From positions 1 through 64,000 of the forward strand of contig JAPDOI010001860.1 of NCBI GenBank assembly GCA_029168955.1: a stretch of DNA of 64,000 nt, given 5' to 3'. The stretch's first letter is position 1. Each line of letters begins with the position of its first letter. Shown piece by piece: positions 3,138-64,000 of this stretch. This DNA is from Aplectana chamaeleonis. Lineage: Eukaryota; Nematoda; Chromadorea; Rhabditida; Cosmocercidae. The notes under the pieces were generated by a model, which was given only the letters and a program-made list of their open reading frames with translations, did not search any database and was not told the DNA's origin. The position numbers and the translations under genes are program-made.

Positions 3138-3533
3138 TATATATAGTGGGTTATTCAGGGTGGCGAGTACGAATTTAACGTTCGTTTGTCGATTTTTGAA
3201 AAACAGGTAGGTTTTGCACCCTAAATGATTTGGTACCTACCGTAACCTACAGTAAACCTCAGAATTCTGACAAACAGACACCAGATTCGTGTTCACCACC
3301 CTAAATTCCCCATACAATCAAGTTTTGAGCAATATCCAAGATTTTTTTTACGCCCGAAAAAATGGCTGATGGGGGCGACCTAGTCTTTCGCGAAGCTTGA
3401 AAAACGCTCATAACTTCTTGGAATCGGGGCGGAATACTTTTTCTATTGAAGCGCTAAAGATACTGGTTCTTATTTGTATCTCTTGCTGAAAGGGGGTTAA
3501 GCGCCCACTTTCGTGCCGCTGACCTATCACAGG

Positions 3534-13900: not shown

Positions 13901-16900
13901 TCTACCGTGTAATAAATCAAATCAAATCTGCATGTGCCGTGGAAGCTTGTGTCCTCTATTAAGTCTATTCGCCTGCCTGCTCACTTGCAAAAAATGTCTG
14001 AACATCGTGAATGCCTATTTTATGAAGTAAGGCGCGCTGGAAATTGGGAAACATATAACGCATTCGCGAAAAAGTTCCATTCTCAGCTGGTTAGGTATAA
14101 CCGTCATTTGGAGAAGAAAAAGATAGAGTCGGGAGATAAGAACTTCTATCGTTATCTGAATTCCAAGTTAAAGGAAAGGAGTAGTATTGGCTGTCTTAAG
14201 AACGGAGACCTTCTTGCAACATCGGCCAGTGATAAGGCAAACATGTTGGCGGATCATTTCGTGAATCAATTCCAAGAAGATGACGGAAATTGTCCGTCTT
14301 CATCCTTCTCAGGTATTCAGCCTATGACTGATTTTCCGTGGTTTCATTCTATGAAGTTGCAGGATTTGTTAGTAAAGTGGTCTAAATCTTCCTCGATCAC
14401 CCCGGATTTCATTCCTCTGTTTTTTATTCAGAAAATTGCACCCGTTATTTGTGGTACCTTGGCCTATATCTTCAATCAGTCTCTTATCTATGGTGAAGTT
14501 CCAATCCGCTGGAAGCACTCTTTTGTAACACCAATTTTGAAGAAAGAGCCGGCCACTGATCCAGGAAGTTATAGACCAGTTAGCATAACCTCACTCTTCT
14601 GCAGACTGTTCGAGAAGGTCCTAAAAGAGCACATCGTCCTACATCTGTTTTCGAATAACATCATTCCCAGGAACCAACATGGTTTCGTACCTGGAAGATC
14701 GGTAGAAACGAACCTTTTGGAATGCATAAACGATTGGACCGAGGCCCTTGACAAGAAATGCAGTTGTGATGTCATTTACTTTGACTTTGCAAAGGCATTT
14801 GATCGTGTCTCACATTTGAAAACTACGGGATCTGGGATTTCATCCGATTTTGATAGAATGGCTCGCCCAATTCTTGTTGGATAGAACGTTTCAGGTGAGG
14901 GTCGGGGATTGTTATTCCAAGGTGAGAAACATAGCGAGCGGGGTCCCACAAGGGGGTGTATTATCACCAATATTGTTTAGTATTTTTACAGCTGACATTC
15001 CTATCATTTTTCCAGACAAAAATGTTTCTGTGAAATTTTACGCGGATGATATAAAGCTCTACAAAGTCATTTCTGAGCCATTAGACAACCAAGTGCTGCA
15101 GGAGGCGATTAACCTGATGGTTGACTGGGCGAAGGAATGGCAGCTACCTCTAGCTCCGCAAAAAACCGTATTTATGCGGGTTCATTTGAGTCCGGCGTCG
15201 ACGGCCCATTCATATACATGTGCTGGTGTCGCGCTCCCAGCGGTAGACGCGGTTCGAGATCTTGGTTTTAACTACGATAGGAAGTTGGATTTTTCTAGCA
15301 TGTCAAAATCAAATGCCAATCGGCTCACAGGCGGATTTTTCAGATTTAATAGGGTATCTCCACTAGAAACAAACAGGTTCTTCTTCTTCTTCTGCAGCCT
15401 CAAAGTGGTTTTTGTCATAGGTTGAGGAACTGGGCGGCCTTCACAGGATTCGTCCAAAGGTCCATTGTTGTTAAGGAGGTAGGTCTCTTCGGGCACATGA
15501 ACAAGTGCGCCGTGTCGTGTCTGGGAGCACCACAGTCCGGGCATGCGTCTGGTCGGCTGCTGTCGATCTTGTTGACGTAAGACATGAGCAGAATAGAGTG
15601 ACCACAGCGCAGCGATGCAAGAGCACATCTGGCTCGTCTGCCGAGTTGAGACTCGGACTCACGCAAACCCGAGGCGGCACCGTTCCCAAGATAGGGTTCA
15701 CAGCCGCCTTTGCTAGATATCCTCGAACAAATTGCGTGTGCTCCTCACGCAGAAGACGAAGCCTTTCCATGTTGAGTCGGCCCATCTCTGTACATCAACT
15801 TTACGAGGAGCATCGGCGAACGGCGTCCTAATCGACCTCTCTCTTATGGGCTTCATGATTCTCTTTGACGGATGATTCGGCTGCCTCAGAACATTAATAT
15901 ACATCTGCTGTGCCTGGAGTTCACAATGCTCCTTGACCGGCAATATGCAGGCCTCCGCGTGAAGATGCTCCACCGGGAGCTCCTTGCACAACCGGTAGCA
16001 ATTCTAAGCGCAGCATTCTGTACACGCTGCAGCTTATTCCAGGAGCTGTCAGACACCAGGTGCTGCCACACTGGTGCCGCATATTCCAGAGCCGGCTGAA
16101 GTATTGCTCTGTAGGTTCTCAATATAGTCTCTCTGCTGCTTCCCCATGATGTTCCTCCGAGAGCTCTCAAGATATTAAGTCTAGCCTTGACGACTGTTTG
16201 TTTCTGTTCCGCGTTTTGTGGAACTTCAGTGAGGATCAAGAATAAGGCCAAGCAGCTTGGGAATTTTGCTGCTGGCAACAGGTCACCATCCCATTTGACA
16301 TCTGGATGGGCACTGTGTTCCTGGTGTTCGTTGTGAACACTGAAACAGAGGATTTTGCGGCAGAGACTGTGAGCATCATTTTATCGAGGAAGAGCTTCAA
16401 CTCGACGAGATAGGCGCTGATCTTGTTAGCGGCTATCTGCAGGTCACGATCCTGGCACATGATGGTGATGTCGTCGGCATACATAACAATCCTTACATCA
16501 TTGGGAGGCTCGGGAATGTCCTCAAGATACAGGCTGAATAGGGCAGGGGACAACACTCCGCCTTGCGGAACACCGGCTGCTATTGGAATGCTATCGGATA
16601 CATGATTCTGGAACAGAACCTTAGCACGGCGGCCTTTAGTGAACGCTGCAATCCATCGCTTCTGCCATGATGGTAGCGACGACTTGAGCAGTTTCTCGGA
16701 CAGCAGTCCCAAGTTAACAGAGTCAAACGCTTTGCTCAGGTCGAGGGCGACGGCCACCGTTCTCAGGGCTTTCTCATGTTGAACCCATCGACCGCAAAGC
16801 TCACGATCTCCAATAGAGCTGTAGTAGTGGAGTGAAGTTTCCTGAACCCATGCTGATGCTGCTGTCGCTCATTTTGATCAGCCAGGTCCGTCACGATCAA

Positions 16901-19900
16901 CTTTTCAGCTAATTTAGCGACGGGCGATAACAGGCTTATTGGTCGAAAGCCCATTGCCGTGCTTTGGGACTTGCCTGGCTTTGGCAACGGTATCACATTG
17001 GCTGTCTTCCAAGCTTGGGGTAGAGTGCAGGTCCGGAAAGAAGTGTTAATGATATCTGCAAGCATCGGTAGAAGTTCCGTGGGAAGCTTCTTCAGGATGG
17101 CTGGGGAGATACCGTCAGGTCCGATAGCCTTCGAATTCCGCATTTCTTTGATAGCCTTCTCTACTTGCGTGAGAGTAAAGGCCTCAGAAGCGTTCATGAG
17201 CGGCAACCGGCTCAGTTCTCTAACCGTGACTCTGTTCTGCACGCCTCGCTTGGCACGTGTGATGAAGAAGTTCTTGCCGAGCGCATAAGCAGCCGCTTTC
17301 CCTGATTTGAAGACGTTCTCCTCGAACTCAATAGCGGAGCTCATCGAGGAGCGGACTTGCCGGAAATTTTCCTCAACACTTTCCACGTCGTAGTTCCGTC
17401 AGCCTTGAAATTCAGCTTTTCAGTGAACTTCTCCCAGCATTCCTTCTTGTTCTTATCCAGATCCTGCCTGATCTCGTTATCCAGCACAGCTATGTCCGGG
17501 TCTAGATGGTCTGCGGCTCTCTTCTCATCTCTGGTTCTTATCTTCTGCAGTATTTCCCTGCTGACATTTGGAAAAAAAGGTCTTGACACGACCCTCAGGA
17601 ATTGCTGCTTTCATGGCCTTGCGGATGGCACTTGTTAGATGGCGCTCTTTCTGATGAACATCACCATTCCATGGGTAGTCGACCGCATGGCGAAGTGCAA
17701 CATCTCTGAACAGGGTCCAGTCTGCTAGGCCTAAATTAAGATAAGTACGATGACGAAAACCAGAGTAAGGGGCAAGAGAGTCAGAGATCAATATAGACAA
17801 AGACGGGAATGTGATCGCTGGAGAGTTGTGGATGTGGACCACGTGCAAAGCATTAGAGATTGGATGACACAAGAGAGATGTCTGGGCTAGAAAGGTCGGC
17901 CGTTGGCAGGGAGACGAGTGGGCTGGTCATCATTGAGGATAACCAGGTCACACTCCTCAGCCCATTCTTCGACATCTTCCCCTCTGGCGTCAGAATCAAG
18001 AGCGGAACAGAACGTGTGAGCATTGAAGTCACCCGCAAAGACAGCTGAAGGGGAGAGTGAGCAGTCGTACAACTGCTTAAGGAGGGGAATAGGATTATAA
18101 GAGGGGACAAGATGATATAGGAGGAATATATATGTTAAATAGAGATAAAGGGGTTTTGAGGGGAGGTGGACAGGAATGTACTCGAGAGTACCGTCCTTAG
18201 GAGTATTAGGGATAATATGAGAAGGTAAGGCAGATTGAACGAAAGTAGACACTCCGCCCCCAAGAGCTGTCCTTGGCATGTGATAGGCAGGTGTAGCCCG
18301 GAATGTTAGGTTGAGGATAAGTGGTAGATGGAGAGAGCTTGGTTTCTTGAACCATGATCACATCCGGTTGATGAGAACGTGCGAATAGAGAGAGTTCAGA
18401 TAACTTGTTGCGAAGGCCGTTGAGATTAATGTGAACAATGGAGAGGGGGCGGTTGGTAATTGAGGAATCAGAGTTGTTGGGGCAGAGCATAGAACACAAC
18501 GAAAGGATGAGTCATGATGCCTCACAGAACTGAGGCCCGAACAGGAGAAGTGCACCCACCTTTGGCATCCGAAGCACTGGACACTTGTTTTATGCCAGGT
18601 AACATCCTCGCCGCAGGTGGCACATGGATACTTCCGTGCTGGACCTGGATTCCTCTCGACGCCGGCCCTTTGTAATAAAATCCTCAGGAGAGCTGCGGCC
18701 GACCAGCACCTCTCCCATGACAAAAACCCTCTTCTCGGAGGGGTTGACGTCGGTTTGCACGGAGGCGATCTTCTTTCCTCCACACTGCCACGGCACGAAC
18801 GTACGACATCTCGGCAGCAAACAGGTTCTGCTCCGAGCATATAAGACTTATATACGACCCATTGTGGAATCTGGAACATCAGTATTCGCTCCGCACAAGA
18901 AAAAGGATATTGACGCGCTCGAAAAGGTCCAGAATAGTTTCACTCGCAAACTGTTGATTCGCATCGGTAGTTTCCTGAATTCCAAGATACCCAGGGCCCA
19001 TTTAAGGAACAAATATTTTGGGTTGCCAACGCTGGATTATCGGCGCAGAGTATTCGACCTTTGCATGGTCCTTAAACTTCTGGAAAACAGCAGTATTTTC
19101 AGGCTTGCACCCTATTTCAAACTAGTCACATCGAGAACTAGAGGTGAAATAATGAAAATATTTCTCGGGCGGCCAATTACCAGTGTTAGGGTTAGGTCTT
19201 TTCCACATAGGGCGGGTAGCGCATACCTGAAAATCGCTAGAAGAGTCACCGGCGCTGCTTCCTTGGGCCAGTTTAGGCGACGGGTATCCCAAATGGTTCT
19301 TAGCTACGAAACATAGCATTTTCGATTGTTTCTTCTTTTCTAGAGATGGATCTTCGTTTGTTTGATTGGTAGGGTGTATGAAGAACAGGAGTATTTTTGC
19401 TCAAGTTTGCTGTCTCTTTTTTCCTTCTCCCGGTCTTGTTAGTTTTTCTGTGCATCTCTTCTTATTATTATCACGCATTTGCCTTATGTGAGAGTAATAA
19501 ACATATACATATACATATAATCTATAGCTATGTACCGCACTATAGCCTATCTCCCTCATTTTGAGATGGTCGAAGTTAGGCTTATCGGGCTTATCATGTC
19601 AAAATCTCCTTATCACTGTTATATTTGACCGACCGCTCAACTGCCTACTCCTCTCGGACTCATCCGAGCAAGCTAGACTTTATATAGCGTGCGGAAACCG
19701 AAGCAGAATTAGGATTCATAACTTTTCCCGTAATCACTAAGTTGACTTCCAAATTTAAATGTTTGAGGATGTATCGCAATATATGTACTGTCGTTCTCAG
19801 AGTCCTTCTGCAGCCACAGAGAGGGTTCTGTCATAGATTCAGGAACTGGGCGACCAGCTTGGGATTCGTCCAGAGATCTATTGTCGTCAATGAAGTCGGT

Positions 19901-22900
19901 CTCATCGGGCAGTATAAAAGGTGCTGCCGAGATGTCGTACGTTCGTGCCGTGGCAGTGTGGAGGAAACAACATCACCTTCGTGCAAACCGACATCACTCC
20001 CTCCACCGAGAGGGTTCTCGTCATGGGAGAGTCGCTGGCTGGCCTCAGCTCTCCTGAAGATTCTACTACAAAGGGCTGGCGTCGAGAGGAATCCTGGACC
20101 TGTGCAGAAGTATCAATGTGCCACCTGCAGCAAGAAAGTCAACTGGAATGGAACAGGCGTCCAATGCTTTGGATGCCAAAGGTGGGTGCACTTCTCCTGT
20201 TCAGGTCTTAGTTCTGTGAGGCATCACAACTCATCCTTCCGTTGTGTTCTGTGCTCCGCCCCCAGCAACTTTGATTTCTCATTCACCAACCGCCCCCTCT
20301 CTATTGTACATATAAATCTTAACGGCTTTCGCACCGAATTGTCTGAACTCTCACTCTTCGCACGTACTCATCATCCGGATGTTATTATGGTTCAAGAAAC
20401 CAAACTCTCTCCCTCCACCACTTATTCCCAATCAAACATTCCAGGCTACACTGCCTATCACATCCCAAGGACAGCTCTTGGAGGCGGAGTTTCTACGTTT
20501 GTGCTTTCTAACTTACCTTCTCATCTAATTCCAAATGTTCCTAAGGACGGTACTCTCGAGTGCGTTCCCGTTCACCTCCCTCTTAAACTCCACTATCTCT
20601 ATTTAATATTTACATGCTGCCGAGATGTCGTACGTTCACGCCGTGGCAGTGTGGAGGAAAGAAGATCACCTCTATGCAAACCGACGTCACCCCCTCCACG
20701 AAGTGTTTTTGTCATGGGAGAGGTGCTGGCCGGCCGCGTCTCTCCTTCGTATTCTCCTGCTAAGGGCCGGCGTGGAAAGGAATCCTGGACCCGCTCAGAA
20801 GAAGAAGAAGTACCTATGTGCCACATGCGACAGAAATGTCACTTGGAATGGGACCAGCGTCCAATGCTTTGGATGCCAAAGGTGAGTGCACTTCTCTTGT
20901 ACGGGTCTCAGTTCTGTGAAGCATCATAACTCTTCTTTTCGCTGTGTTATATGCTCTTTACCTACCAACTCTGATTCCTCTTCCTCATATCGCCCCCTTT
21001 CCATTGTACATATCAATCTCAACGGCCTTCGTGCCAAACTTTCTGAGCTCTCTCTCTTCGCACGTACTTACCATCCAGACGTGATCATGGTTCAAGAAAC
21101 CAAGCTCTCTCCATCCCCTACCCGTCCTCATCCTAACATCCCGGGCTATACCGCCTTCCATGCTCCAAGGTCAGCTCTTGGCGGAGAAGTTTCAACCTTT
21201 GTTTTATCTTCTCTGCCCTCCCACCTCATACCCAACACCCCCACGGATAGTACTCTCGAGTACCTTCCAATCCATCTCCCCCTTAAAACACCCCTTTGTC
21301 TTTTCAACATATATATTCCTCCCATTACCTCATGCCCCCCATCTTACGATGCTATTTTTCTACTTAAGCAGCTAAACGACTGCTCCATCTCATCTTCGGT
21401 TGTCTTCGCGGGCGATTTTAATGCTCACACCTTTTGTTCGTCACTTGATTCTGACGCTAGAGGAAATGACGTCGAAGAATGGGCAGGGGAGTGTAACCTG
21501 GTCATCTTAAACGATGATCAGCCCACTCGCCTCCCTTCCAACGGCCGATCTTCCAGCCCAGACATATCTCGTGTCTCGTCCAACCTCTCTAACTCTTGCT
21601 CATGGTTCGCCTCGACCACTTTGCCAAGCGACCATGTCCCCATCTTTATCCATATCGATCTCTCCAACTCTCTCGCTCCTTATTCTGGTGTTCGTCAACG
21701 TTCTTATCTTAGTTTAGGCCGAGCAGACTGGAGCCTGTTCAGTGAAGTTGCGCTTCGCCTGTCGGCAAATTACCCGTGGAATGGCGACGTGCACCAGAAA
21801 GAGTGTCATTTATCTGACGCGATCCGCAGAGCCATGAAAGCGGCTATTCCTGTCGGCCGCGTCAAGACTTTCTATCCAAATGTCACTAGGGAGATCCTCG
21901 ATAAGATCAGGACAAGAGATGCCAGGAGAGCGGTCAACCATCTGGACCCCGTCGTTGCTGATCTTGACGATGAGATCAGAAAGGATTTAGACAGGCACAA
22001 GAAAGAAGAGCGGGAAAAGTTCACCGGGCAGTTGGATTTCAAGACGGACAGTGCAGCCACTTGGAAGGTATTACGAAAGCTTTCGGGTAAGAGCTCATCT
22101 GCTACCGTTTCCACAATCGAATTCAACAACGGTGTATTCAAATCAGGAAAAGAAGCCGCTTATGCGCTCTGTAGAAGTTTTTTCATCACTAGTGCAAAGC
22201 GTGGTCCGCAGAACAGAGTGACTCTACGAGAGCTGTGCCGCCTCACGCTTACGAGCACGGCCGAAGCGTTCACTTCGACGCAAGTTGAGAAGGTTATAAA
22301 GGATATGCGGAATTCAAAAGCGGTTGGTCCAGACGGGATATGTCCTGCTGTCTTGAAGAAGATACCGAATGAAATCCTACCGCTTCTCACTGATTTGATA
22401 AACACCTCGTTCAGATCGTGCACCATCCCACAAAATTGAAAGACAGCTAACGTTGTGCCGCTGCCCAAGCCGGGGAAACCTCAGGCCTCAGCAAAGGGAT
22501 ACAGACCCATTAGCTTGCTGTCCACGTTTGCAAAGGTAGCCGAAAAACTGATCGTAAAGGATCTTACAGAGCACAATGAGAACCAGGTGTTTGAGCACGG
22601 ATTCAGAAAGTTGCATTCCACCACGACAGCTCTATTGGAAATTACAAGTTTTGCCATCGATGGCTTCAATGCCCAGAAGCCACAGAGAACTGTGGCTGTT
22701 GCCTTGGATCTTACCAAGGCATTCGACACAGTAAACCATAAAGTTCTGTCAAGCAACTTACTGATGTCATCAATACCGCCGTGGCAGAAACGCTGGATAT
22801 CTGCATTCATCAAGGGCAGACGAGCCAGAGTTATGTTCCAGAACCATGTATCTAATAGTATTCCTATTGCAGCTGGAGTCCCACAGGGCGGCGTTTTATC

Positions 22901-25900
22901 GCCTGCTCTCTTCAGTCTGTACCTCGAATACATGCTCGCCCCTCCCCAGGATATCAAGGTGGTCGCCTATGCCGGTGATATGACAATAATGTGTCGGGAT
23001 CGAGATATAAATGTGGCCGCCTCCAAGATCAATGAGTACCTGGCCACAGTGAAAAGCTTTTTCGACCGCAAAATGCTAAAGATCTCGACATCCAAATCGT
23101 CGGTATCCGTACTCACAACGGATCCATCAGAGCACAGCGCCCACCCGCATGTCGAGTGGGACGGAGATCGATTACCTGCTGCTCGCTTTCCCAAACTGCT
23201 CGGTCTGGTGCTCGATCCATCGCTCAAGTTTCACAAAAACACCGAGCAGAAGCAGGCCGTCGTCAAAGCGAAGCTTAATGAGCTTAGAGCCTTGGGCGGT
23301 ACATCATGGGGCAGTAGCAAGGAAACTATTATCAGGACCTACAAGGCCATACTTCAGCCCGCTCTGGAGTACGCTGCACCGGTGTGGCAGCACTTGGTAT
23401 CAGAAGCCTCCTGGACCAAAATGCAGCGTGTACAGAATGCCGCACTTCGTACAGCTACCGGATGTGCAAGAAGTTCCCCAGTCGAGCACTTGCATGCGGA
23501 GACACGATTATTGCCAGTAAAGGAGCACTGTCAGCTCCAGGCCCAACAATTCATCAATATCATAAAGCAACCCACCACCCCTCATGGAGAGTGCTGAACC
23601 CCGTCAAGGAGAGAGACATCAGAAAGCCATTCGCCGATGCTCCAAGCAAAGTCAATCTGCAAAGATGGCACGATTCACAGCAAGAACGACTCCGTCTATT
23701 GCGCGAGGAGCACACACAATTTGTACGGTGTTCTGGAAAGGGCTGCGGTAAATCCCATCCTGGGAGTAGCGCCGCCCCGTGTCTGCACATCCGAGTCTCA
23801 ACTCGGAAGGAGGGCCAGATGCACCCTGGCATCGCTGCGCTGTGGTCACTCTACTATGCTTATGGCTTACGTCAGCAAGATTGACAGCAGCAAATCGGAC
23901 GTTTGCCCAGACTGTGGATGCCAAGGCCACGATACTGCACATCTGTTTAATAGTCCGGAGAGACCAACCACGCTGACCACAATGGACCTATGGACGAATC
24001 CATTACTGGTCGCCCAGTTCCTCAACCTATGACAAAACTCTCGACGTGGCTGCAAAGAAGAAGAATATTTACATTCCTCCCACCACTTCTTGTCCCCAAC
24101 CTACACCCCCATACCTCTTCTTAAGCAGTTGCATGACTGCTCTCTCTCCCCATCAGCTGTCTTTGCAGGTGACTTCAATGCTCACACCTTCTGTTCTGCG
24201 CTTGAGTCCGACGCCAGAGGGGAAGACGTCGAGGAATGGGCTGACGAGTGTGATCTGGTTATCCTCAACGATGGTCAGCCTACTCGTCTCCCTTCCTACG
24301 GCCGACCTTCTAGCCCGGACATCTCCCTCGTTTCATCCAATCTTTCTAATGCTTGCTAATGGTGCACTTCCACAACTCTTTCCAGCGACCACATTCCCGT
24401 CTTTCTCCATATTGATCTCTCAAACTCTCTTGCCCCTTATACTGGTATTCGTCAACGTTCTTATCTCAATTTAGGCCTTGCTGACCGGGTCCTGTTCAGA
24501 GAGGTTGCGCTCCGCCAGGCAGCTGAATATCCATGGAATGGCGATGTGCACCAGAAAGAGCGTCATATATCTGATGCCATCCGGAAGGCCACAAAAGCGG
24601 CCATACCTGAAGGACGTGTGAAAAGTTTCTACCCTAATGTCACCAGGGAGATTCTACAGAAGATCTGGACAAGAGATGAAAAGAGAGCTGAGAATTATTT
24701 GGACCCTGAGGTGGCCAAGCTGGATGAAGAGATAAAAAAGGATCTGGACAAGCACAAGAAAGTTGGGAGAAGTTCACTGAAAGGTTCAGTTTTAAAACCG
24801 ACGGAACAACTGCGTGGAAAGTATTGAGGAAGATATCTGGCAAGTGCGCCCCCTCCTCGAACTCTACCATAGAGTTCGATAACAGCGTCTTAAAATCAGG
24901 AAAGGCTGCCGCATATGCTCATGGCAAAAATTTCTTCATCACAAGTACCAAGCCAGGCATATAAAACAGAGTCATGGTAAGAGAACTAAGCCGTCTGCCG
25001 CTGATGAACGCCACTGAGGCCTTTACTCTTGCTCAAGTGGAGAAGGCTATCAAGGAAATGCGGAACTCGAAGGCTCTCGGACCTGATAGTATCTCACAGC
25101 TATCCTGAAGAAGCTTCCCACGGAACTTCTACCGATGATCGCAGATATCATAAACACTTCTTTCCGAACCTGCACTCTACCTCAAGCATGGAAGACCGCC
25201 AATGTGATACCCCTGCCTGAGCCAGGCAAATCGCAAAGCACGGCGAAGGGCTATCGCCCTATTAGCCTGTTATCACCGATCGCGAAAGTAGCCGAAAAGC
25301 TAATCGTAAGGGACCTGGCAGAGCAGAATGAGGCACAGCAACATCAACATGGGTTTAGAAAGCTTCACTCCACCACCACTGCCCTTCTGGAGATTGTTAG
25401 CTATGCGGTCGATGGGCTCAATATCAGAAAGTCTCTAAGAACAGTGGCCGTTGCCCTCGATCTAACCAAAGCATTTGATTCTGTTAACCTAGGACTTTTA
25501 TCCGAGAAACTATTGAAGTCCTCGCTACAACCGTGGCAGAAGCGTTGGATCGCAGCGTTTACGAAAGGTCGTCGGGCCAAAGTGCTATTCCAGAGTCACG
25601 TCTCCGATATCATACCTGTAGCAGCCGGTGTGCCGCAGGGTGGAGTTTTGTCACCTGCCCTCTTCAGCCTGTATATTGAAGACCTACCTGAGCCTCCTGA
25701 AGATATAAAAATTGTTGCGTATGCCGACGATATCACCATCATGTGCCGTAATCGTGACATACAGGTAGCCGCAAACAAGGTCAGCGACTATCTCGTCGTG
25801 CTTAAAAACTTTCTCGATAGTATGATGCTCACAGTTTCCGCGGCGAAGTCTTCTGTTTCGGTATTCACATCATACCCAAAGGAACACAGCGCCCAACCTG

Positions 25901-30041: not shown

Positions 30042-30244
30042 GCAGGATCCGAGATGCTCAACCTACGCGTGGTGGATCTGTGGAGTCGACTACCAAGCCG
30101 GCTCATCAACCGAGCATCAACTACTCCTCAAGGAGTTTTTTCGAAATGGGAGTGTGAATGGCTGGCTGATGCACTTCTTCCGTGTGACGTCGCCGCCTTT
30201 TTGGGCCTATGAGAAGAAGTTGCTGTGGCTGATAAGAAGAAGAA
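30042..30244 (+). mobile_element. Short family C 3' fragment in A5
   Basis: This 203 bp insert is flanked by GTAGAAGTT (30033-30041, 30245-30253). It ends with codons for CDVAAFLGL, a stop and GATAAGAAGAAGAA, matching the C-terminus and tail of family C. It is a heavily 5'-truncated copy. Confidence 0.7.
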
Positions 30245-33699: not shown

Positions 33700-34086
33700 T
33701 ATACTTGGGCATCGAATAATTTCGAATCATCCGATAAATGAATTTTTCTCGTCAATTTTACAACGAATCGAGCTTTCTCTATTTTTCGGACAACAACTAG
33801 GGGGGAATCTTCTCATAAGTTAGGTTAGAGTAGAATCAGCTGCATTCATTGAATCACAATCATCAATTATTCGAAAAAAATAGTCGACTTCGACTAATAG
33901 TAGACTTATTTCCTGAAAAACTGATATTTGTGATTTTGTGAATGCACAGAATTCTACTTTGCCATAAATAATGAGAACACAACCCCTAACTTGAGGCCTG
34001 AAAACCAAAATAGCTCAGATCATTCTGACTCCAGAAAGAAAAATTGATTTTTCGGATGATTCGAAATTATTCGATGCCCAAGTATA
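33700..34086. mobile_element. hAT-like MITE in A5
   Basis: The ends are TATACTTGGGCATCGAATAA and its complement CCCAAGTATA, with about 35 bp inverted repeats. The flanks ATGTGAAT (33692-33699) and ATGTGAAC (34087-34094) form an 8-bp duplication with one mismatch. The empty site matches A2 (TTAATGTGAACAATGG). The interior is AT-rich and non-coding. Confidence 0.7.
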
Positions 34087-34689
34087 ATGTGAACAATGGA
34101 GAGGGGGCGGTTGGTAATGGAGGAATCAGAGTTGCTGGGGCAGAGCATAGAAAACAACGAAAGGATGAGTCATGATGCCTCACAGAACTGAGGCCCGAAC
34201 AGGAGGGATGCACCCACCTTTGGCGTCCGAAGCACTGGACACTTGTTTTATGCCAGGTAACATCCTTGCTGAAGGTGGCACATGAATTCTTCTGCGCTGG
34301 ACCTGGATTCCTCTCGACGCCGGCCCTTTGTAGTAAAATCCTCAGGAGAGCTGCGGCCGACCAGCACCTCTCTCATGACAAAAACCCTCTTCTCGGAGGG
34401 GTTGACGTCGGTTTGCACGGAGGCGGTCTTCTTTCCTCCACACTGCCACGGCACGAACGTACGACATCTCGGCAGCCGTACCTACGACACGTACTTAACG
34501 TACGACATTTCAAAGTGTCACAAGAAATACCATAGCTTTCGAGTTTCAGAAATAGTTTTGGATGAATAACTGTGCCGGAAGCTCTAGCATAGTTCAGTTC
34601 AGTAGTGTTTGTTCGCAGCTGAACATCAGTCTTGGAACGAAGATACCAGCTGAGATAGTATTGATCTACCAGGCTTTCTTCTAGTTAAA

Positions 34690-37485: not shown

Positions 37486-40400
37486 ATGTCATCCCACACT
37501 AGTGACTGGGAGGTGAACTGCATTCGGAACCTAGCCATTGGTTGTGCTGCTTTCGATCCTACAAATGCGTAAGACCTTTTCTTGCTACACCTTTTGACTT
37601 TTCTTCCTTTCGTTTACATGTGTAGGCTATAAAAAGGCGAAATTCACTTGGTTCCTACGCGTGCTGGTGCGGAGCGGAGGTTAGAGACAGTGAGAGAGCG
37701 TAGGGCAGACGGAGGCCGAGGCGTCGCGCGCGCCGCTCGCGCTTCAAATGATGTGAATAACGACGTTTTATAGGGGGTATGTTCTCAAAAATAAATTGGA
37801 GATAGAGGCATGTCCTTTTCTGTCCTCCTTTCGTACTGTCCCTTTAACGTAATTATGTTCAAAACCATCTGGTATTCGCTTAATAATTTGAAACGTTTCT
37901 AACATGTTCGCACTTATTTGGTTTTAAGTCTCAATCTTCATCACATCCTTGATCTTGAAGGCACAGTAATCCCAGGAAAACATCGCTTTAGTAACTAGGA
38001 CAATGAAATTTAGAAAATCGCGTGTTTATGTGGGACAATTTTTGTTCCTGGCTCCTAAGTGTTATATTTCAATTGTTTATGTCTAATGCATGTGAAAAAA
38101 TTACTTCATTGAGAACCTGCTTCGCTTACACTACAACAGCACGAAGAAAACCCGTTTTTTGTGAAAATAGAAAGATTTTTATTCATTTTTGGCACTATGA
38201 TCAGGTAAAAACAAAAAATGCCCAAGGAATAGAGTAATGAGTCGGACGACATCGAGAACATAATGGTTTATTATAGCAATATCACAGCAACACGAATAAG
38301 TGGGCGTGGTCGATGTCGAGCAGGGCGAAGTGGATCGTGGGGCCCGAGGTGACGAGAGGAGAGGCGAGGCGGTTGGCAGTCGTGGAGACGGGAGGTGACG
38401 GTGCTGTCCGGATTGAGCGAGTGATGATGGGGCGGTGCCTCCAGTCCCTTAAATAGCCGAGTTGGGTTCTGCATTAGGAATGATAACGCAATCCACTCGG
38501 GACCTATTGGCTATGTGCTACAAGGTATCTCGTCCTTAAGTACCTCCCTGATTCAACTCGAACTCGACGTTGCACACAAATGTAGTCTATCCTCATGGTT
38601 TCGTTATCCTGTCCTTGGTAACGACGTTCAAAGTACAATATATCTTGATGAAAGGGCTAGCTTTGATCGTTGAATTTGTCGAGATGCGAATCAATGATAT
38701 GAACTCTCAGAGGCGTTCTGCATCCCATTATGGCGTAATTCTTCATGAGAGTGCACCAACTCCACATAGCTTCGGGCTTTGTGATCACCTAGGAAGCCGT
38801 GAACAACTGCAAGGAAATTGCTCCAAACCGTTCTCTCCGTCCTGTTCAACAGCTTTGCGAAATCCTCACATTTTACGATCCTCTTTATCTGTGGTCCGAC
38901 GAGTCTCCATCCCTGACCTTAGCCTCGGACGGAGTCGTCACCAAGGACAGTATAACGAAAACATGATGAGAGACTACATTTGGTTGCAACTTCGACAGAG
39001 TGATTCACAGTGCAATCGTAAATCTAGGAAATCTACACATTTCTGAACCTTGTTGAGTGCTTTCCGAATGTGTTTGTCTATTCCTTGCGCATTTTTTGTT
39101 TTTATCTGTTCATAATGCCGGAATTGAATAAAAATCTTTCTATTTTTAGAAAAAACGGGTTTTCTTCGTGCTGTTGTAGTGTAAGCGAAGTTTGTTCCCA
39201 ATGAAGTAATTTTTTCATATACTTTGGACATGACTTACTTGACTTAAACGGTTGGCTTTCGCCTGACACTGTCATTCCGCATCTTCACCGAGGTGTGCTG
39301 TCCTAGTAGTTAGCCGTGTCCATTTGTCACGGTCCTCAGCCACAATTTGACCACAATCCATCCATTGGTCGCTGTTCCACTTCCTGCGAAGTAAAACATC
39401 GCGCCTGAATTGCCTTTTAATGCCCTACGCCCAGGTGGCCGTTTCCAGACAGGACTTGGAAGCATCCTAAGAGCGTGTTGGACAAGACGATCTGGCGGTC
39501 TCCTCAAAATATGCCCCAACAGACGAAGACGACCTTACGTTACCGCTTGAGATGGCATTGGGAGATGTTGGCATCTCCCTCGTGTCAAACGTTGTGTAAG
39601 GCGTCAATCTCGTCGTAGAGATCTTCGTTGTGGCACATCCGCGGCCAGAAATATCCGAGCAAACGTCTAAACCGTAGAGTGTTGGAACGAATAATTTTTT
39701 TTGAATATTAGAATAAACGAATAATTCGAATAATCCACTTCTTCGAATATTAGATTATTCGAATAAACGAAAATTTCACTTTGAATATTCGATTATTCAA
39801 ATAACCCGAATAATCCACTTCTTTGAATATTCGAATTATTCGAATAAACGAATATTTGGGCAACACTACTAAACAGCTTCCTCTCCGTGCAATCCAGCCT
39901 TTCCATCTGCGTCTTCGGTGCTGCCCACCAGGCCATCCAATCCACTCGGGCATACTGGGGCATCGACAACAGGTTGAGAAGTTGTCATTTCATAAGCTGC
40001 ACCCTCTTGACAACTCAAATCGCTCGCATTGTAAGCCTGACAACTGCCCGTTGCCCAGCGACGTCCGCCTGTTGTCGGGCTGTTGACATTTTGACCTGTC
40101 GCGTTTAGCGGCCTATTTAGCAGCGTTTCACATCCTGTCAGACCTTTATGTGGCTTAGGAACTACTTTGCACCGACCCGCCTCGCGGTCGGCGCATCGAC
40201 ACGCATCGCGGTCAGCACACCTACACGCATCGCGGTCGGCACACCGACACGCGTAGCGGTCGGCGCGTCGACACGCGTCGCGGTCGACACACCGACACGC
40301 AGCGTGGTCGGTATACCCACGCGTCGCGGCTGGGTCACCCAACCTCCACTGAGGCCGCCACCAGATGGGCAGGGCTTCCAGATGCTGAGCGGGGCCAATG

Positions 40401-46400: not shown

Positions 46401-49400
46401 CCATACCTTTAATGGGACCGCCTTACCCGTATTTCTCTGCTTTCCCTTATCACTCATTCCACAACTTCTTCCTAGGTCTTGAAGAATCCGCGTGCCCGAT
46501 TCAGCTGTCCGAGTACCTGCTAGGCAACAGGGTCACAAATATACTCTTAATTCCTTTCCCGAAACGCCAACGCCATTGTAAGCATTAAAACGAGCTAAAA
46601 TTACCGTATCTGAGCGATTTCCTACGGCCTGGTTTGAGAACTCCTCTCTTTTGCTAGCGGAACCGCAACACCGATTATGCATTCGGTAAGGATTGCACTG
46701 TTATGTACTTCGAGTTCCCTACTGAAGGTTGGTTCAAACTCGGTGCACGTACGTCGAAAACTATGGAACCGAACTTGCACCAACGTTAAATAGAGATCGC
46801 AAAGTATCAGTCCGACCCGTGGCAACTCTGTATTATCTAGAGCCGAGAATCGGTCGCCCAGCGCAAATTATTTTTTCCCATATCTTCTATGTACCTTGCA
46901 GGTTCATAGGTTTATGGTTTCTAAAATTTGCCGCTTTGTGTAGTTTAGCTCCCATAGTGAAGGAATCTTGCCAAGGCGCCCCAGCATTTCGCATTTGTTA
47001 GAGATGAAAGAAAAGTGCGAAGATGGGCGTTTAAACTAGCGCTCACTCCTTTTCTGAGTGTCCGCTTGCCGCGGACGAAGAGAAGTTAACTGGAGGCAAC
47101 GACGTTGAGAGTCAAACTTCTTAAGTGAAAAAGGACGCCCCGCTTGTTGATTTTTGCCGGCTCAGAGTAGACATAATCTACTAAAAAGGCGGGCCAAGAG
47201 CAGTAATTGAAGCAATTTTGGGATAGCTCAGACTGCCTCGCTCGATGTTTTGGCGCTAATCCAGTAGTAGGAATCACAACAGTTAATCTTTATGAAAAAC
47301 TCGAAAACAAAGTTCCTCGTGAAGAGTGCTTTCAGACTGCGTTTCGTCGTAGGCGGCAGCTAGTGAGACGTGCGCGGCACCCAACGCGGATCAGTTATCC
47401 AGCGCCTCTAACTCCGACCATGTGTCCCGCTTTGAAACGATAGAATCGCGTCAAAGAATGATAATGGGATCGTGTTGTAGTCACACGCCTGGGTTGGTCC
47501 CATCTCCTTACCAAAAATATTAGTATACGCAAAGTGGGATTAGAGCAGGTCAATTGGAGATATCTTGTTATTAACTTCGATTGCATGTATTTTTATTTAC
47601 GAAAAATTACGATTTACGGTCCAAAATGTCGTAAATCGTAAACCGTAATTACGAGTCCAAAAAACACCGTAAATCGTAAAATCGTAAATCGTAATTACGC
47701 ACACCCCTGATCCCGATGTCCTGACATGATTGATATTCGTACCAGCACCACTATCTTCTAGCTCTCTGTAAACCTCTAAAGCGGTCGTCTGCAACTGCGG
47801 ACAGCGATTCCATTCCGATATAAATAGACAGTAAAGATGGGGATCGGCTCTAAGGACCTGGCTGGCTCATGGAGCAAATAAAGGTTGGAATCCAATATAA
47901 ACTTCATTGCAGAATTTTGCGGAGATATCAAAAACAAACTTCCCTACGCATCCATCTTTAGCGGTTGAAAAGATTCAAGCAAAAAAGAGGAACTTCGTGA
48001 ATTCAAATCTGCCGGAGAATCGGGAAATTATTCTACTAACCTCTAAACATTATTCGAAAAAAGATTTTTACGGGGACTCCCAAATTAACCTTTGATGTCT
48101 ATCTCGAGAGGCTACGAGAGGAGAGGGGTAATTTGAGAATTGGGTTTGAAACATTTCTAAGAAATTATGGTTGCAGAGTCTCCTTCTTTTTCAAAGAGTT
48201 TTGAAATGTTTTAATAATGAGGAGCAAATTCTGAACGCAAAAAAAGAAGATGGAGAACCTACTTTTTGAATAGCACAGATTTTGAGGGAGCCCTCACCAT
48301 TTTGCATTTCAAAATCCTAATCAACCTTCACCACTCAGACCGCATTTGTGCACCACTGCAAATGCTGAGCACAAACTGCATCCCAAGGTTCTATGGGGAA
48401 GGAATCTGCTGCCCCTATCTAAGCACCCTCGTCTACTTGGTGTGTTCCTGTACCCTTCATCGCGTTTTCACGAAAACACACGTATTCGAGCTGCTACGGC
48501 CAACACGCGAAATAACATCCTCCGTGCTCTGGCGTGCACCACCTGGGGTAGCACAAAGGAAGTTTTACGCACAACGTAAAAGACCATGATACAGCCAACT
48601 CTGGAATATGGGGCTCCGTTATGGACCAGACATCTGTCAGAGGCGTCCTGGAACAAGCTTCAACGTGTACAGAACTCTGCACTACGTGTCATCACTGGCT
48701 GCTCAAGGTCAACGCCCATGTCCCATCTCCATCAAGAATGTGCAGTACTTCCTGTCAAACAACACTGCCAGCTGCAACCTCAACAGTTCCACATTGGCAT
48801 TATTAAGAACGCCGCACATCCCAACTACCCACTTCTGTCATCTGATCCACATCACCGTAATATTCGCACACCACTCCATGCTGCTATTTCTACATTGGAT
48901 CGTCAAAGATGGGCCACCTCTGAGGTCACACGAAAGAGGCTACAACAAATCGAGCACACTAGATTTGTGTCTGAGTACCTGACCTGCGCCCCTTCCAACC
49001 CGATCCTTGGTGCCGTGCCTCCCACGGTTGATGATAGTGAGGAAGGTCTGCCCAGGCGCTCCCGCGTCACTCTGGCAGGTCTACGTTGCGGTCATTCTTC
49101 CTACCGCAAAGCCTACGTACACAGGATTCACGAGTCGGTGCGAGATAAATGTCCTGACTGTCAGAATACTGGACATGATTCATTGCATTTATTTTCATGC
49201 TCCGCCAGACCTACTTCTCTGTCTGCTTGTGATATGTGGAACAAGCCGTGTAATGTAGCTGCCTTTCTACGCCTATGAGAAGAAACTGCTGTGGCCGATA
49301 AGAAGAAGAAGAAGACCGCCGTCTCCACCCCAACAAACTTACGCTTATGTGGAGGAACGCTTATAACTCCGCTCAGAGCAACGCTTAACAAATTTAGAGC

Positions 49401-55765: not shown

Positions 55766-55926
55766 CAGCCGGCAGCCTGATGGACAAGTTCGCGCGTGTG
55801 CTGTGGCCTCATTGATCGACATTTTCTTATCAACTTCTGTTAACTCGTCATAGCATTATTTCTCTCGTACATTCTCCCACGCGCCCTCGCGCTCGTTTTA
55901 TACTTTCTGTTTGCTCGTTTTGTATT

Positions 55927-56728
55927 ATGTACAATACCCGCGCTAAGTTTTGTAAAAACGGGGAGCATCTGGCAAACTTGGCAAAAAAGCGTCCGATGCA
56001 TGCAACTTTTTTGAATGAAGACTTTTTTGAAATCTGAAAACGCTATCATATTCACAGATCAAATTGCTACCTAATTATGTGACTTGTGTGCCGAAGTTCC
56101 CTAAGAGCACTTTGTTTTTGAAGGAAATATTTTTTGCAATCGTTTTTCAAAAAACGTCGCGCGCGGCGAATGCGGCGAAACTTTGAGCAGTATTTGTACA
56201 AGTAATTGAAGAGCAATTGGTATGTTTTGTTCAAAAATTGAGTGCAGGTGGGGGAATCTCAAGGTTTGTTTAGGTTGAGTTTTTGAAATCCTTCATTTAT
56301 GAGTCCGGGGATTTCGCAACAAAATTCTGGCTTTTCAGGTAGTTCTCAAGCGTGTTTAATTGAGGGTTTCGAAAATTCAACCTGAACAAACCTTGAGATA
56401 CTCTCACCTGCACTTAATTTTCGAAGAAAACATACCGATTGCTCTTCAATTACTTGTACAAATACTGCTCAAAGTTTCGCCGCATTCGCCGCGCGCGACG
56501 TTTTTTGAAAAACGATTGCAAAAACTATTTCCTTCAAAAACAAAGTGCTCTTAGGGAACTTCGGCACACAAGTGACAAAATTAGGTAGCAATTTGATCTG
56601 TGAATATGATAGCGTTTTCAGAATTCAAAAAGGTCTTGATTCAACAAAGTTACATGCATCGGACGCTTTTTTGCCAAGTTTGCCAGATGCTCCCCGTTTT
56701 TACAAAACTTAGCGCGGGTATTGTACAT
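55927..56728. mobile_element. 802 bp near-perfect palindrome
   Basis: The arms of about 370 bp start ATGTACAATACCCGCGCTAA (55927) and end with its complement (56728), around a spacer of roughly 60 bp near 56290-56350. Differences between arms are few. Open frames in each arm mirror each other and are by-products. No target duplication is certain. Confidence 0.8.
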
Positions 56729-57056
56729 CATTCGAAACTGAGGTATGATTTGTATCCCATCTCTAGGGAGCCGCGTTGTAGCTATTTTCTCACGAGCGAA
56801 GCGGTTATCTCCTCATTCTCATCACCGTGATTTCTTGAAAAAAAAGAACCGATTCTATGATGAAGCTATCATAGCACCGTCGCGGCTTCCCCTCCCCTCT
56901 AGATTGACGATAGGTGTTGCTCGAGCCTCATGAGACAGTTTTATCATATGTGTCCATTGTTTAGGAAGACACAGCTAAGCGACATACATGGCACGATCGG
57001 AAGCGAAGGTATCATTATCTCATCAATGATATCATCGCTTCGGCGTGTGCCACATA

Positions 57057-62859: not shown

Positions 62860-64000
62860 CTACCATTTTGCGGTCGAATAAGGCACCGCTTTTATGGAGG
62901 ATCGCCTACTCGTTGGCAAGAGCGTACGCGGAATCAGAAGTCGTCTACAACTGCGTTCATCCTTTCGAAGTCAAAGGTCCTCAACTATACCTCCCAGAAT
63001 TCACTTTTCACGAGTCCTGGAGCCAATTTTTTCGGTTGCGGGTCAGCATAAACCGGCGCTGCTGATCCGTTGTCTACTCATCCGTGCCGGAATTGAAGCA
63101 AACCCTGGACCCCCTCGTCGGATTCGATGGCCCTGCACCCAGTGTGGTACCTCAGCCGCTGCAGGGAGCGTCCAATGTATCAAGTGCAGGAAATGGACTC
63201 ATGTGAGGAAATGTTCCGGTCTCAAGTCCTTCAAGGATGCGGACGGCTCATACGTGTGCCCGAACTGCGTAGCCGTGCCGGCATCTCAACCTCAACGTTC
63301 AAGTCCCGTTTCTCTGAAGATAATCCAATGGAATATCAATGGTTTTCGCAACAAATCAGCTTAACTAGAAGCTCTCGCATACCGTATAGGAGCTGAAATT
63401 GTGGGACTTCAAGAGACTAAACTGGACCCAAATCACGGATCACCGGTTGTTCGAGGTTACACCTGCCTGAGAAACGACAGGACGAGCTCTGGAGGAGGTG
63501 TGGCTTTTCTGGTTAGAAACGACTTACAGTGCAGTGTGATCACTCCAACAACTAGCGATGGTGCCACGGAATGCATCTCCATAGCTGTGGAAACGAATGC
63601 TGGATCTGTTCACATTCACAACCTCTACTCTCCGCCAAGATCCTCATGCCCACCCTCATACGAGCTGTCTATCGCCCAATTCCCGACATGCGGGAAATCC
63701 ACAATCGTCATGGGAGATGTCAACGCGCACAGTCCTCTTTGGTCTGAGGATGAAGAGGACCAACGTGGACAGGACCTCGAAGAGGAGATAGCGCAATCCA
63801 ATTTCTTGATTCTCAATGATGACCCTCACCCTACTAGGAAGCCGATATATGGAAGACCCTCATCACCACACCTCTCGCTGTGCTTACAGGACTCAACATC
63901 GTCAGCAGTTTGGGACACCGTGAACACAGGGGCGAGTGACCACCTCCCGATCCTGATGGAGTTCAAAAGCGAGACCCTCCTATCTTCCTCACCGAGAACC
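62860..64000 (+). mobile_element. Family F LINE 5' part (2A, PHD, endonuclease), runs off the window
   Basis: From ATG 62894 one frame gives a basic leader (MEDRLLVGKSVRGIRSRLQL...), the 2A-like motif LLIRCLLIRAGIEANPGP (about 63058-63111), a PHD-like finger (PCTQCG, VQCIKCRKWTH, RKCSGL, YVCPNC) and LKIIQWNINGFRNK. A single TAA at 63362 then interrupts the endonuclease, which stays open to the end: EIVGLQETKL, SSGGGVAFLV, VMGDVNAHSPLW, SDHLPILMEF. Catalytic Glu, Asp/Asn and His positions are present. It is the least decayed LINE start in the window and distinct from families A and C. Unlike A2 and A5, the AUG and 2A are in the same frame. Confidence 0.85.

What the first reader, a model, noticed from the sequence alone, without database searches (positions are those of the whole stretch)
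18640..18817. Family A LINE: predicted -1 frameshift site feeding a 2A-like peptide
In A2 and A5 the 5'-most AUG frame (MSYV...) ends after about 41 codons, inside the 2A leader. The frame carrying GVERNPGP, PHD, endonuclease and RT has no AUG before the PHD finger. The AUG frame contains GGGTTTT in exact X XXY YYZ register; a -1 slip lands in the polyprotein frame. Seven nt on, GGAGAG/CTCTCC plus GCTG/CAGC form a hairpin kept in A2, A4 and A5. In A3 the heptamer is gone, a 2-nt deletion fuses the frames, and the inner stem has decayed. Sequence, register and hairpin are seen directly; that frameshifting occurs is inference. Combining -1 recoding with 2A at the head of a LINE would be unusual.
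Basis: partly seen in the sequence, partly recalled or inferred. Interest (0 to 1): 0.87.

Follow-up and report, generated by a model that had tools for sequence, protein, structure and literature searches.

The report
Ribozyme-headed LINE with misframed start codon
The front end of an abundant LINE retrotransposon folds like a self-cleaving ribozyme, its only early start codon lies inside that ribozyme in the wrong reading frame for the 2A-led replication protein, and how ribosomes reach the right frame (a slip at GGGTTTT or a start without AUG) is unsettled.

Summary
In A2 and A5 the AUG frame ends after 41 codons, GGGTTTT is in register, and the -1 frame carries 2A. In the window's own genome the mismatch is shared: 20 of 20 A2-type copies read, heptamer included; 36 of 39 A4-type heads by match length only; 39 of 39 A3-type heads without net indel. 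The frame fusion at 20616 looks private.

The predicted cleavage site equals the TSD-defined 5' end of two copies. The AUG sits in helix P2; in that relative and in a second 2A LINE (62888) it is in frame.

For frameshifting: no synonymous change over heptamer and hairpin between A2- and A4-type, nine in the next 16 codons. Against: the A3 copy reads GGGTTCT, the hairpin is no stabler than shuffles, and about half of the relatives aligned have a VF-like motif there. AUG-less initiation is slightly favoured; frameshifting stays open.

The parts
18746..18818 (-). HDV-like ribozyme fold at the 5' end of copy A2 (nt 1-73): P1 1-6/30-35 with G1.U35, P2 9-15/67-73, P3 17-19/27-29, L3 20-26, P4 36-42/54-60, J4/2 GTGCAAAC
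   Evidence: 16 of 16 core pairs; descriptor scan; covariation with 30045
18684..18809 (-). AUG ORF (MSYV..., 41 codons and TGA); its AUG (18807-18809) is inside ribozyme helix P2
18723..18729 (-). GGGTTTT heptamer in register with the AUG frame; in the 2A frame the codons GGG TTT at the VF-like motif position
   Evidence: motif
18687..18715 (-). GGAGAG..GCTG..CAGCTCTCC hairpin 7 nt after the heptamer
   Evidence: arms also in A3 and in the heads of L019 and L029
18640..18663 (-). 2A/StopGo core GVERNPGP, preceded by LLQRA
18487..18624 (-). PHD finger (below the Pfam cut-off: 22.2 bits against 24)
15382..18818 (-). LINE copy A2 (2A-PHD-EN-RT), TSD candidate AGAACCTGTTT directly before G1
34404..34476 (-). 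same ribozyme fold, copy A5; heptamer at 34381-34387
19923..19995 (+). same ribozyme fold, copy A3 (P2 pair 11-71 U-A instead of U.G); heptamer position reads GGGTTCT
20616..24063 (+). LINE copy A4, inserted in A3 with 11-bp TSD AATATTTACAT; ribozyme 20616-20688; a 2-nt deletion, probably private, puts AUG and 2A in one frame; TGA at two conserved Trp codons (20883, 22437)
30045..30236 (+). D: about 190-nt internally deleted element with ribozyme fold (30045-30118), leader with VF motif in the AUG frame, LINE-like C terminus FLGL and stop, GAA-rich tail, TSD candidate GTAGAAGTT with three bases (GCA) between it and G1
62888..62982 (+). C: HDV-like fold (weaker case) at the head of a second 2A-PHD LINE; AUG at 62894, GIEANPGP at 63089-63112 in the same frame

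Best explanation
Family A is a LINE whose first 73 nt are an HDV-like self-cleaving ribozyme; [quoted passage not shown] The AUG at nt 10 is part of ribozyme helix P2. The 2A-PHD-endonuclease-RT polyprotein lies in the -1 frame, open to the element's first base and without AUG. I think the polyprotein most likely starts without that AUG, in the 2A frame, by ribozyme-linked or near-cognate initiation; the GUG at nt 36-38 (context AGUGUGG) is the only near-cognate codon upstream of the heptamer that A2, A5 and A3 share in that frame. 2A then releases the leader from PHD-EN-RT. Shown: anatomy, fold with covariation, frame mismatch, conservation. Inferred: cleavage, initiation mode, StopGo activity.
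For: Ribozyme (I put the fold alone at about 0.9): a strict descriptor, written after seeing family A, gives 7 window hits, 6 with a 7-bp P2, against means of 0.51 and 0.03 in 100 shuffles (the sixth was not identified). D has 16 of 16 core pairs with seven two-sided compensatory changes; 0 of 200000 shuffles of D reach that (best 14), and slid registers give at most 10. The TSDs of A4 and A2 end at the base before G1. A U and a G in L3 and C-A in J4/2 are present in A and D, features named for such ribozymes in PMC3774820 (passages 94; sections 12 and 15 read). No AUG: 2A frame open to nt 1 in A2, A3 and genome copy L018. A2 and A3, both mismatched, are at EN-RT dS 0.89 with omega 0.11. The A3 copy lacks a slippery heptamer, and 39 of 39 other A3-type heads scored match it without net indel. 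Upstream of the heptamer the 2A-frame peptide of A3 resembles a relative's leader (P0015, p=0.007 among 12 uncorrected tests).
Against: In D and C the ribozyme AUG is in frame with the leader or 2A, which suggests that this AUG is a real start codon in the clade. The block without synonymous change over heptamer and hairpin is not explained by AUG-less initiation as such. GUG is a weak start, is out of the 2A frame in A4 and D, and may be conserved only for the ribozyme. Codon-position tests on the leader do not separate the frames (p 0.26-0.30 for the 2A frame; 74; N/S 0.49 against 1.38 was not tested). In one search A3 in the AUG frame also gave p=0.03 and A2 in the 2A frame p=0.24. The heptamer of the 39 A3-type genome heads was not read. 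Rfam finds no HDV family (14, 16), though its models hold no pseudoknots.
Confidence: 0.45

Rival explanations
1. One reading: ribosomes start at the AUG inside ribozyme P2, read about 29 codons, and a fraction slip -1 at G GGU UUU, helped by the hairpin, into the 2A polyprotein; the rest end at the TGA.
For: Heptamer and mismatch in 20 of 20 A2-type copies read; heptamer in 2 of 4 A4-type heads read (L019 and L029 yes; window A4 and the decayed L042 no). Window A4 is about dS 2 from A2 in EN-RT. A2 against the L019 head: 0 synonymous changes over 9.3 sites in nt 90-131, 9 over 13.0 in nt 132-179; Fisher p 0.0017. A3 changes the bulge and loop but not the arms. G_GGU_UUU is listed among the shiftiest heptamers, and -1 frameshifting next to StopGo is known in cardioviruses (PMC5009743 passages). 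The ribozyme AUG is in frame in D and C.
Against: The A3 copy reads GGGTTCT and has no other in-register heptamer. Shuffles give a heptamer in 2.9%; hairpin z near 0. The block boundary was set after looking and rests on one pair of subfamilies; swapping of 5' ends between subfamilies could give the same. VF-like codons may explain the Ts.
Confidence: 0.35
2. AUG and 2A in one frame is the working state; out-of-frame copies are dead or parasitic.
For: A4 (20616), D and C have the AUG in frame, and so has the second head in L029 through an extra C; relatives' predicted proteins run through 2A from a Met (40), though gene callers force that.
Against: 20 of 20 A2-type copies and, by length, 36 of 39 A4-type heads are out of frame; L018 keeps 925 codons open after NPGP in the 2A frame; 1 of 39 A4-type heads has the length class of A4.
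Confidence: 0.1
3. The full mRNA carries an upstream AUG in the 2A frame (transcripts starting in flanking DNA, or splicing) and the ribozyme is inactive or slow.
For: The 2A frame is open to nt 1, so an upstream start would read through.
Against: The 5' flanks of the window heads differ from each other while the heads begin at the same base, which argues that the copied RNA starts there.
Confidence: 0.08

Closest known systems
L1Tc/ingi LINEs of trypanosomatids (Pr77 HDV-like ribozyme, 2A near the N terminus) and their short internally deleted partners NARTc/RIME
   Same: 5'-terminal HDV-like ribozyme, 2A-headed protein, and a short element keeping both ends (D) beside the LINE (PMC4035085: background section read, and passages; 2A in L1Tc from a reference title seen)
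   Different: Animal-like relatives, PHD finger, AUG inside P2, polyprotein out of frame with it; the L1Tc 5' UTR is said to reach beyond Pr77
R2 elements and other LINEs with HDV-like ribozymes
   Same: Fold, cleavage at or near the 5' end, proposed link of ribozyme and translation initiation (PMC4908430 passages; PMC3774820 sections 12 and 15; Ruminski 2011 seen only as a reference). That R2 has no clear AUG is recalled.
   Different: R2 uses a different endonuclease and has no 2A (recalled)
APE-type LINEs with N-terminal 2A (Odon et al. 2013, seen only as a reference; paper not held)
   Same: 2A before PHD-EN-RT; 43 of the 120 listed relatives have NPGP near the N terminus
   Different: Relatives at hand are protein predictions, so their start frame and any ribozyme could not be seen
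Cardiovirus -1 frameshift beside StopGo; HeT-A frameshift
   Same: Recoding near 2A; frameshift in a non-LTR element (PMC5009743 passages)
   Different: In cardioviruses the slip follows StopGo and diverts ribosomes; here it would precede 2A and feed it

Membership tests
HDV-like self-cleaving ribozyme | Nested double pseudoknot P1-P2-P3-P4 | tested here: met
   16 of 16 core pairs in A2, A5, A3, A4 and D, P4 in each; seven compensatory pairs; P1-P3 in C
HDV-like self-cleaving ribozyme | P1.1 of one or two pairs | tested here: inconclusive
   C22-G36 in all five; second pair A-U in D, U.U mismatch in A
HDV-like self-cleaving ribozyme | Catalytic C with an A after it in J4/2; U and G in L3 | tested here: met
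   GCAAAC in A, TCAACC in D, TCAAA in C; L3 residues; features, exact HDV numbering recalled
HDV-like self-cleaving ribozyme | Cleavage site at the element 5' end | tested here: met
   TSDs of A4 and A2 end at the base before G1; in D three bases lie between
HDV-like self-cleaving ribozyme | Match to an Rfam HDV model (not a defining feature) | tested here: not met
   No family at gathering level in the window; near the head only an unrelated sR47 hit at E 3.8
HDV-like self-cleaving ribozyme | Self-cleavage | not testable with these tools
   needs RNA
2A/StopGo | (D/G/C/N)(V/I)ExNPGP with L-rich upstream ending (A/G/S)G | tested here: met
   LLQRAGVERNPGP; motif from PMC12846837 section 10, read
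2A/StopGo | Peptide-bond skipping | not testable with these tools
   needs a translation assay
-1 programmed frameshift signal | X XXY YYZ heptamer in the zero frame | tested here: met
   A2, A5, 20 of 20 A2-type copies, 2 of 4 A4-type heads read; not in the A3 copy
-1 programmed frameshift signal | Stimulatory structure 5-9 nt downstream | tested here: inconclusive
   Hairpin at 7 nt with conserved arms, but MFE no better than shuffles
-1 programmed frameshift signal | Frameshift product | not testable with these tools
   needs reporter or peptides
L1Tc/ingi clade | RT phylogeny in that clade | not tested
   no tree was built; only Pfam domains and protein relatives

The most novel reading that the evidence does not exclude
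A start codon built into a helix of a self-cleaving ribozyme begins a short ORF, a -1 frameshift at GGGUUUU then feeds a 2A StopGo, so three RNA or peptide devices in the first 180 nt set and trim the output of one LINE polyprotein.
Probability: 0.33. Interest if true: 0.88.

Novelty: new variant of a known kind. Interest (0 to 1): 0.7.

Why it matters
HDV-like ribozymes and 2A are each known in LINEs, but how ribozyme-headed LINEs start translation is, as far as I know, open. Here a very abundant family keeps an AUG inside the ribozyme and puts the polyprotein in another frame, with relatives in the same window that have the two in frame. That gives natural matched constructs for testing frameshifting against AUG-less initiation. 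I found no paper on this combination, but only asked for ribozyme and 2A together (0 papers); searches took other pairs of terms, and the library holds open-licence papers only.

Tried and rejected
Dead-copy reading: from the window alone I first thought heptamer copies were dead and A4 intact. Rejected: the A2/A5 deletion is private, A4 has two further frame-changing deletions near its 3' end, and A4's fusion looks private.

Coding tests on the leader and leader similarity by frame were too weak to decide. N-terminal protein searches found nothing. Viral collection scans found no relative. An 18-base pattern in genome contigs gave 4 exact hits in bacterial records, taken as chance and not followed. 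Family C came from a relaxed scan that listed 7 places with a 7-bp P2 (90) against a mean of 0.61 and a maximum of 5 in 200 shuffles; the AT-rich hit at 39841 was set aside as a likely false one, and the 6-bp hit at 48537 was not followed. In 200 kb of arbitrary genome stretches (20 of 10 kb) one decayed A4-like head without heptamer was found. Genome-wide pattern counts of GGGTTCT against GGGTTTTT heads, the best remaining test, did not complete.

Full report
WHAT IS THERE. The finding lies at the 5' end of LINE copy A2, minus strand, 18818 downwards. Four copies in the window keep a 5' head: A2, A5 (34476, minus), A3 (19923, plus) and A4 (20616, plus). All start at the same GCTGCC. The AUG at nt 10 opens a 41-codon ORF in A2, A5 and A3. 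The frame with GVERNPGP and the PHD finger is -1 to it and has no AUG before PHD. Pfam sees PHD (below cut-off), endonuclease and RT. The genome is an unnamed one of 1.04 Gb in 2087 contigs; relatives include proteins of Diaphorina citri and Sergentomyia, so an arthropod is likely (inference).

THE FRAMESHIFT SIGNAL. GGGTTTT is in register in A2 and A5; A3 has GGGTTCT; A4 has GTGTTTT and a 2-nt deletion. In-register heptamers occur in 581 of 20000 shuffles; hairpin z-scores are -0.10 (A2), +1.09 (A5), +0.96 (A3) and +0.48 (A4). In the 2A frame GGG TTT falls on a motif about 25 residues before NPGP that reads VF or IF in 16 of 31 aligned heads (counted by eye; the call took the 30 of 43 NPGP-bearing relatives with NPGP at residue 25 or later, and family C). 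The 43 are of 120 listed out of 302 proteins found. The consensus of 18 full sequences also shows VF.

GENOME COPIES. The A2 head has 2504 first-look candidates of which 40 were scored: besides the window itself, 39 heads at 98-100% and one 95% fragment. Of the 39, 20 copies were fetched, all chosen for head similarity; 18 align to A2 over its whole length, L029 to nt 3359 and L027 to nt 1693. All 20 have GGGTTTT, the 41-codon ORF and the -1 2A frame; in the first 252 columns one column varies, in one copy. L018 stays open 925 codons past NPGP. A4-type: 39 other full heads scored; by match length 36 of 39 differ from window A4 by 2 modulo 3, that is they are in the A2 frame class, 2 are in the third class and 1 is like A4 (lengths only, sequences not read, and the indels are assumed to lie between AUG and 2A). 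Four A4-type heads were read: L019 and L029 have GGGTTTT, window A4 and the decayed L042 do not. The L019 head is split by an A2-type insertion; the L029 head has an extra C after the hairpin that puts its AUG in frame with 2A. A3-type: 39 of 39 others match over the whole 278 nt with no net indel and one common score, which I take as about three differences from the window copy; their heptamer was not read. Two of A3's differences from A2 fall in the heptamer stretch, so I think GGGTTCT is probably the A3-type state, but this is inference.

SELECTION. EN-RT: A2-A3 dS 0.89, omega 0.11; A2-A4 dS 1.98; A3-A4 dS 2.53 (saturated values are rough). Yet nt 1-46 differ by 1 to 3 bases among A2, A3 and A4. 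Between A2 and the L019 head nt 90-131 have 0 synonymous changes over 9.3 sites and nt 132-179 have 9 over 13.0 (Fisher p 0.0017). For A2 against A3 the figures are 1.5 over 9.8 and 6 over 12.8, for A3 against L019 1 over 9.8 and 6.5 over 13.5. The boundary was chosen after looking, and exchange of 5' ends between subfamilies is an alternative. A3 differs there mainly by nonsynonymous changes in the bulge and loop, with the arms kept. So the head seems constrained as nucleic acid.

THE RIBOZYME. Nt 1-73 fold as an HDV-like double pseudoknot. Core pairs (P1, P2, P3): 16 of 16 in all four A copies and in D at 30045, which differs on both sides in seven pairs; 0 of 200000 shuffles of D reach 16. 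The strict descriptor was written after seeing family A: 7 hits in the window, 6 with a 7-bp P2, against 0.51 and 0.03 on average in 100 shuffles; four of the six are A copies and one is D. D is a short element with leader and LINE-like C terminus, GAA tail and a TSD candidate, like the internally deleted partners of L1Tc. The TSDs of A4 and A2 end just before G1; in D three bases lie between. A relaxed scan also finds the fold at the head of a second 2A LINE, C, at 62888 (weaker). The A AUG is nt 10-12 in P2; in D it is at the same place and in frame with the VF leader; in C it is at nt 7 and in frame with 2A.

HOW IT WORKS. The ribozyme would free the RNA at G1. For translation two models remain. 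AUG-less initiation in the 2A frame fits the A3 copy, the frame open to nt 1 and the published proposal that such ribozymes take part in initiation (passage). Frameshifting fits the conserved heptamer-hairpin block and the in-frame AUGs of C and D. I give them 0.45 and 0.35. In either case 2A would shed the leader. Nothing here shows cleavage, frameshifting or StopGo.

NOVELTY. Each device is known; the layout, with an AUG in P2 and the polyprotein out of frame, was not found in the searches named under Why it matters, which are narrow.

Noticed in passing
73-1532: A 3' fragment of family A with 62 indels against A4, almost all small insertions; looks like uncorrected read errors rather than decay.
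   Followed up: no
33700-34083: A5 is interrupted by a short element with inverted ends ACTTGGGCATCGAATAATTTCGAATCATCCG (MITE-like).
   Followed up: no
30045-30236: Short internally deleted element D with ribozyme fold, leader and LINE tail, inserted in a family A copy.
   Followed up: partly
20883 and 22437: Two in-frame stops of A4 are TGA where all six relatives compared have tryptophan.
   Followed up: partly
L019 and L029: Family A heads are themselves targets: L019 holds an A2-type copy inserted inside the heptamer stretch of an A4-type head.
   Followed up: partly
55917-56738: Inverted repeat with 381-nt arms, 94% complementary, 60 nt apart.
   Followed up: no
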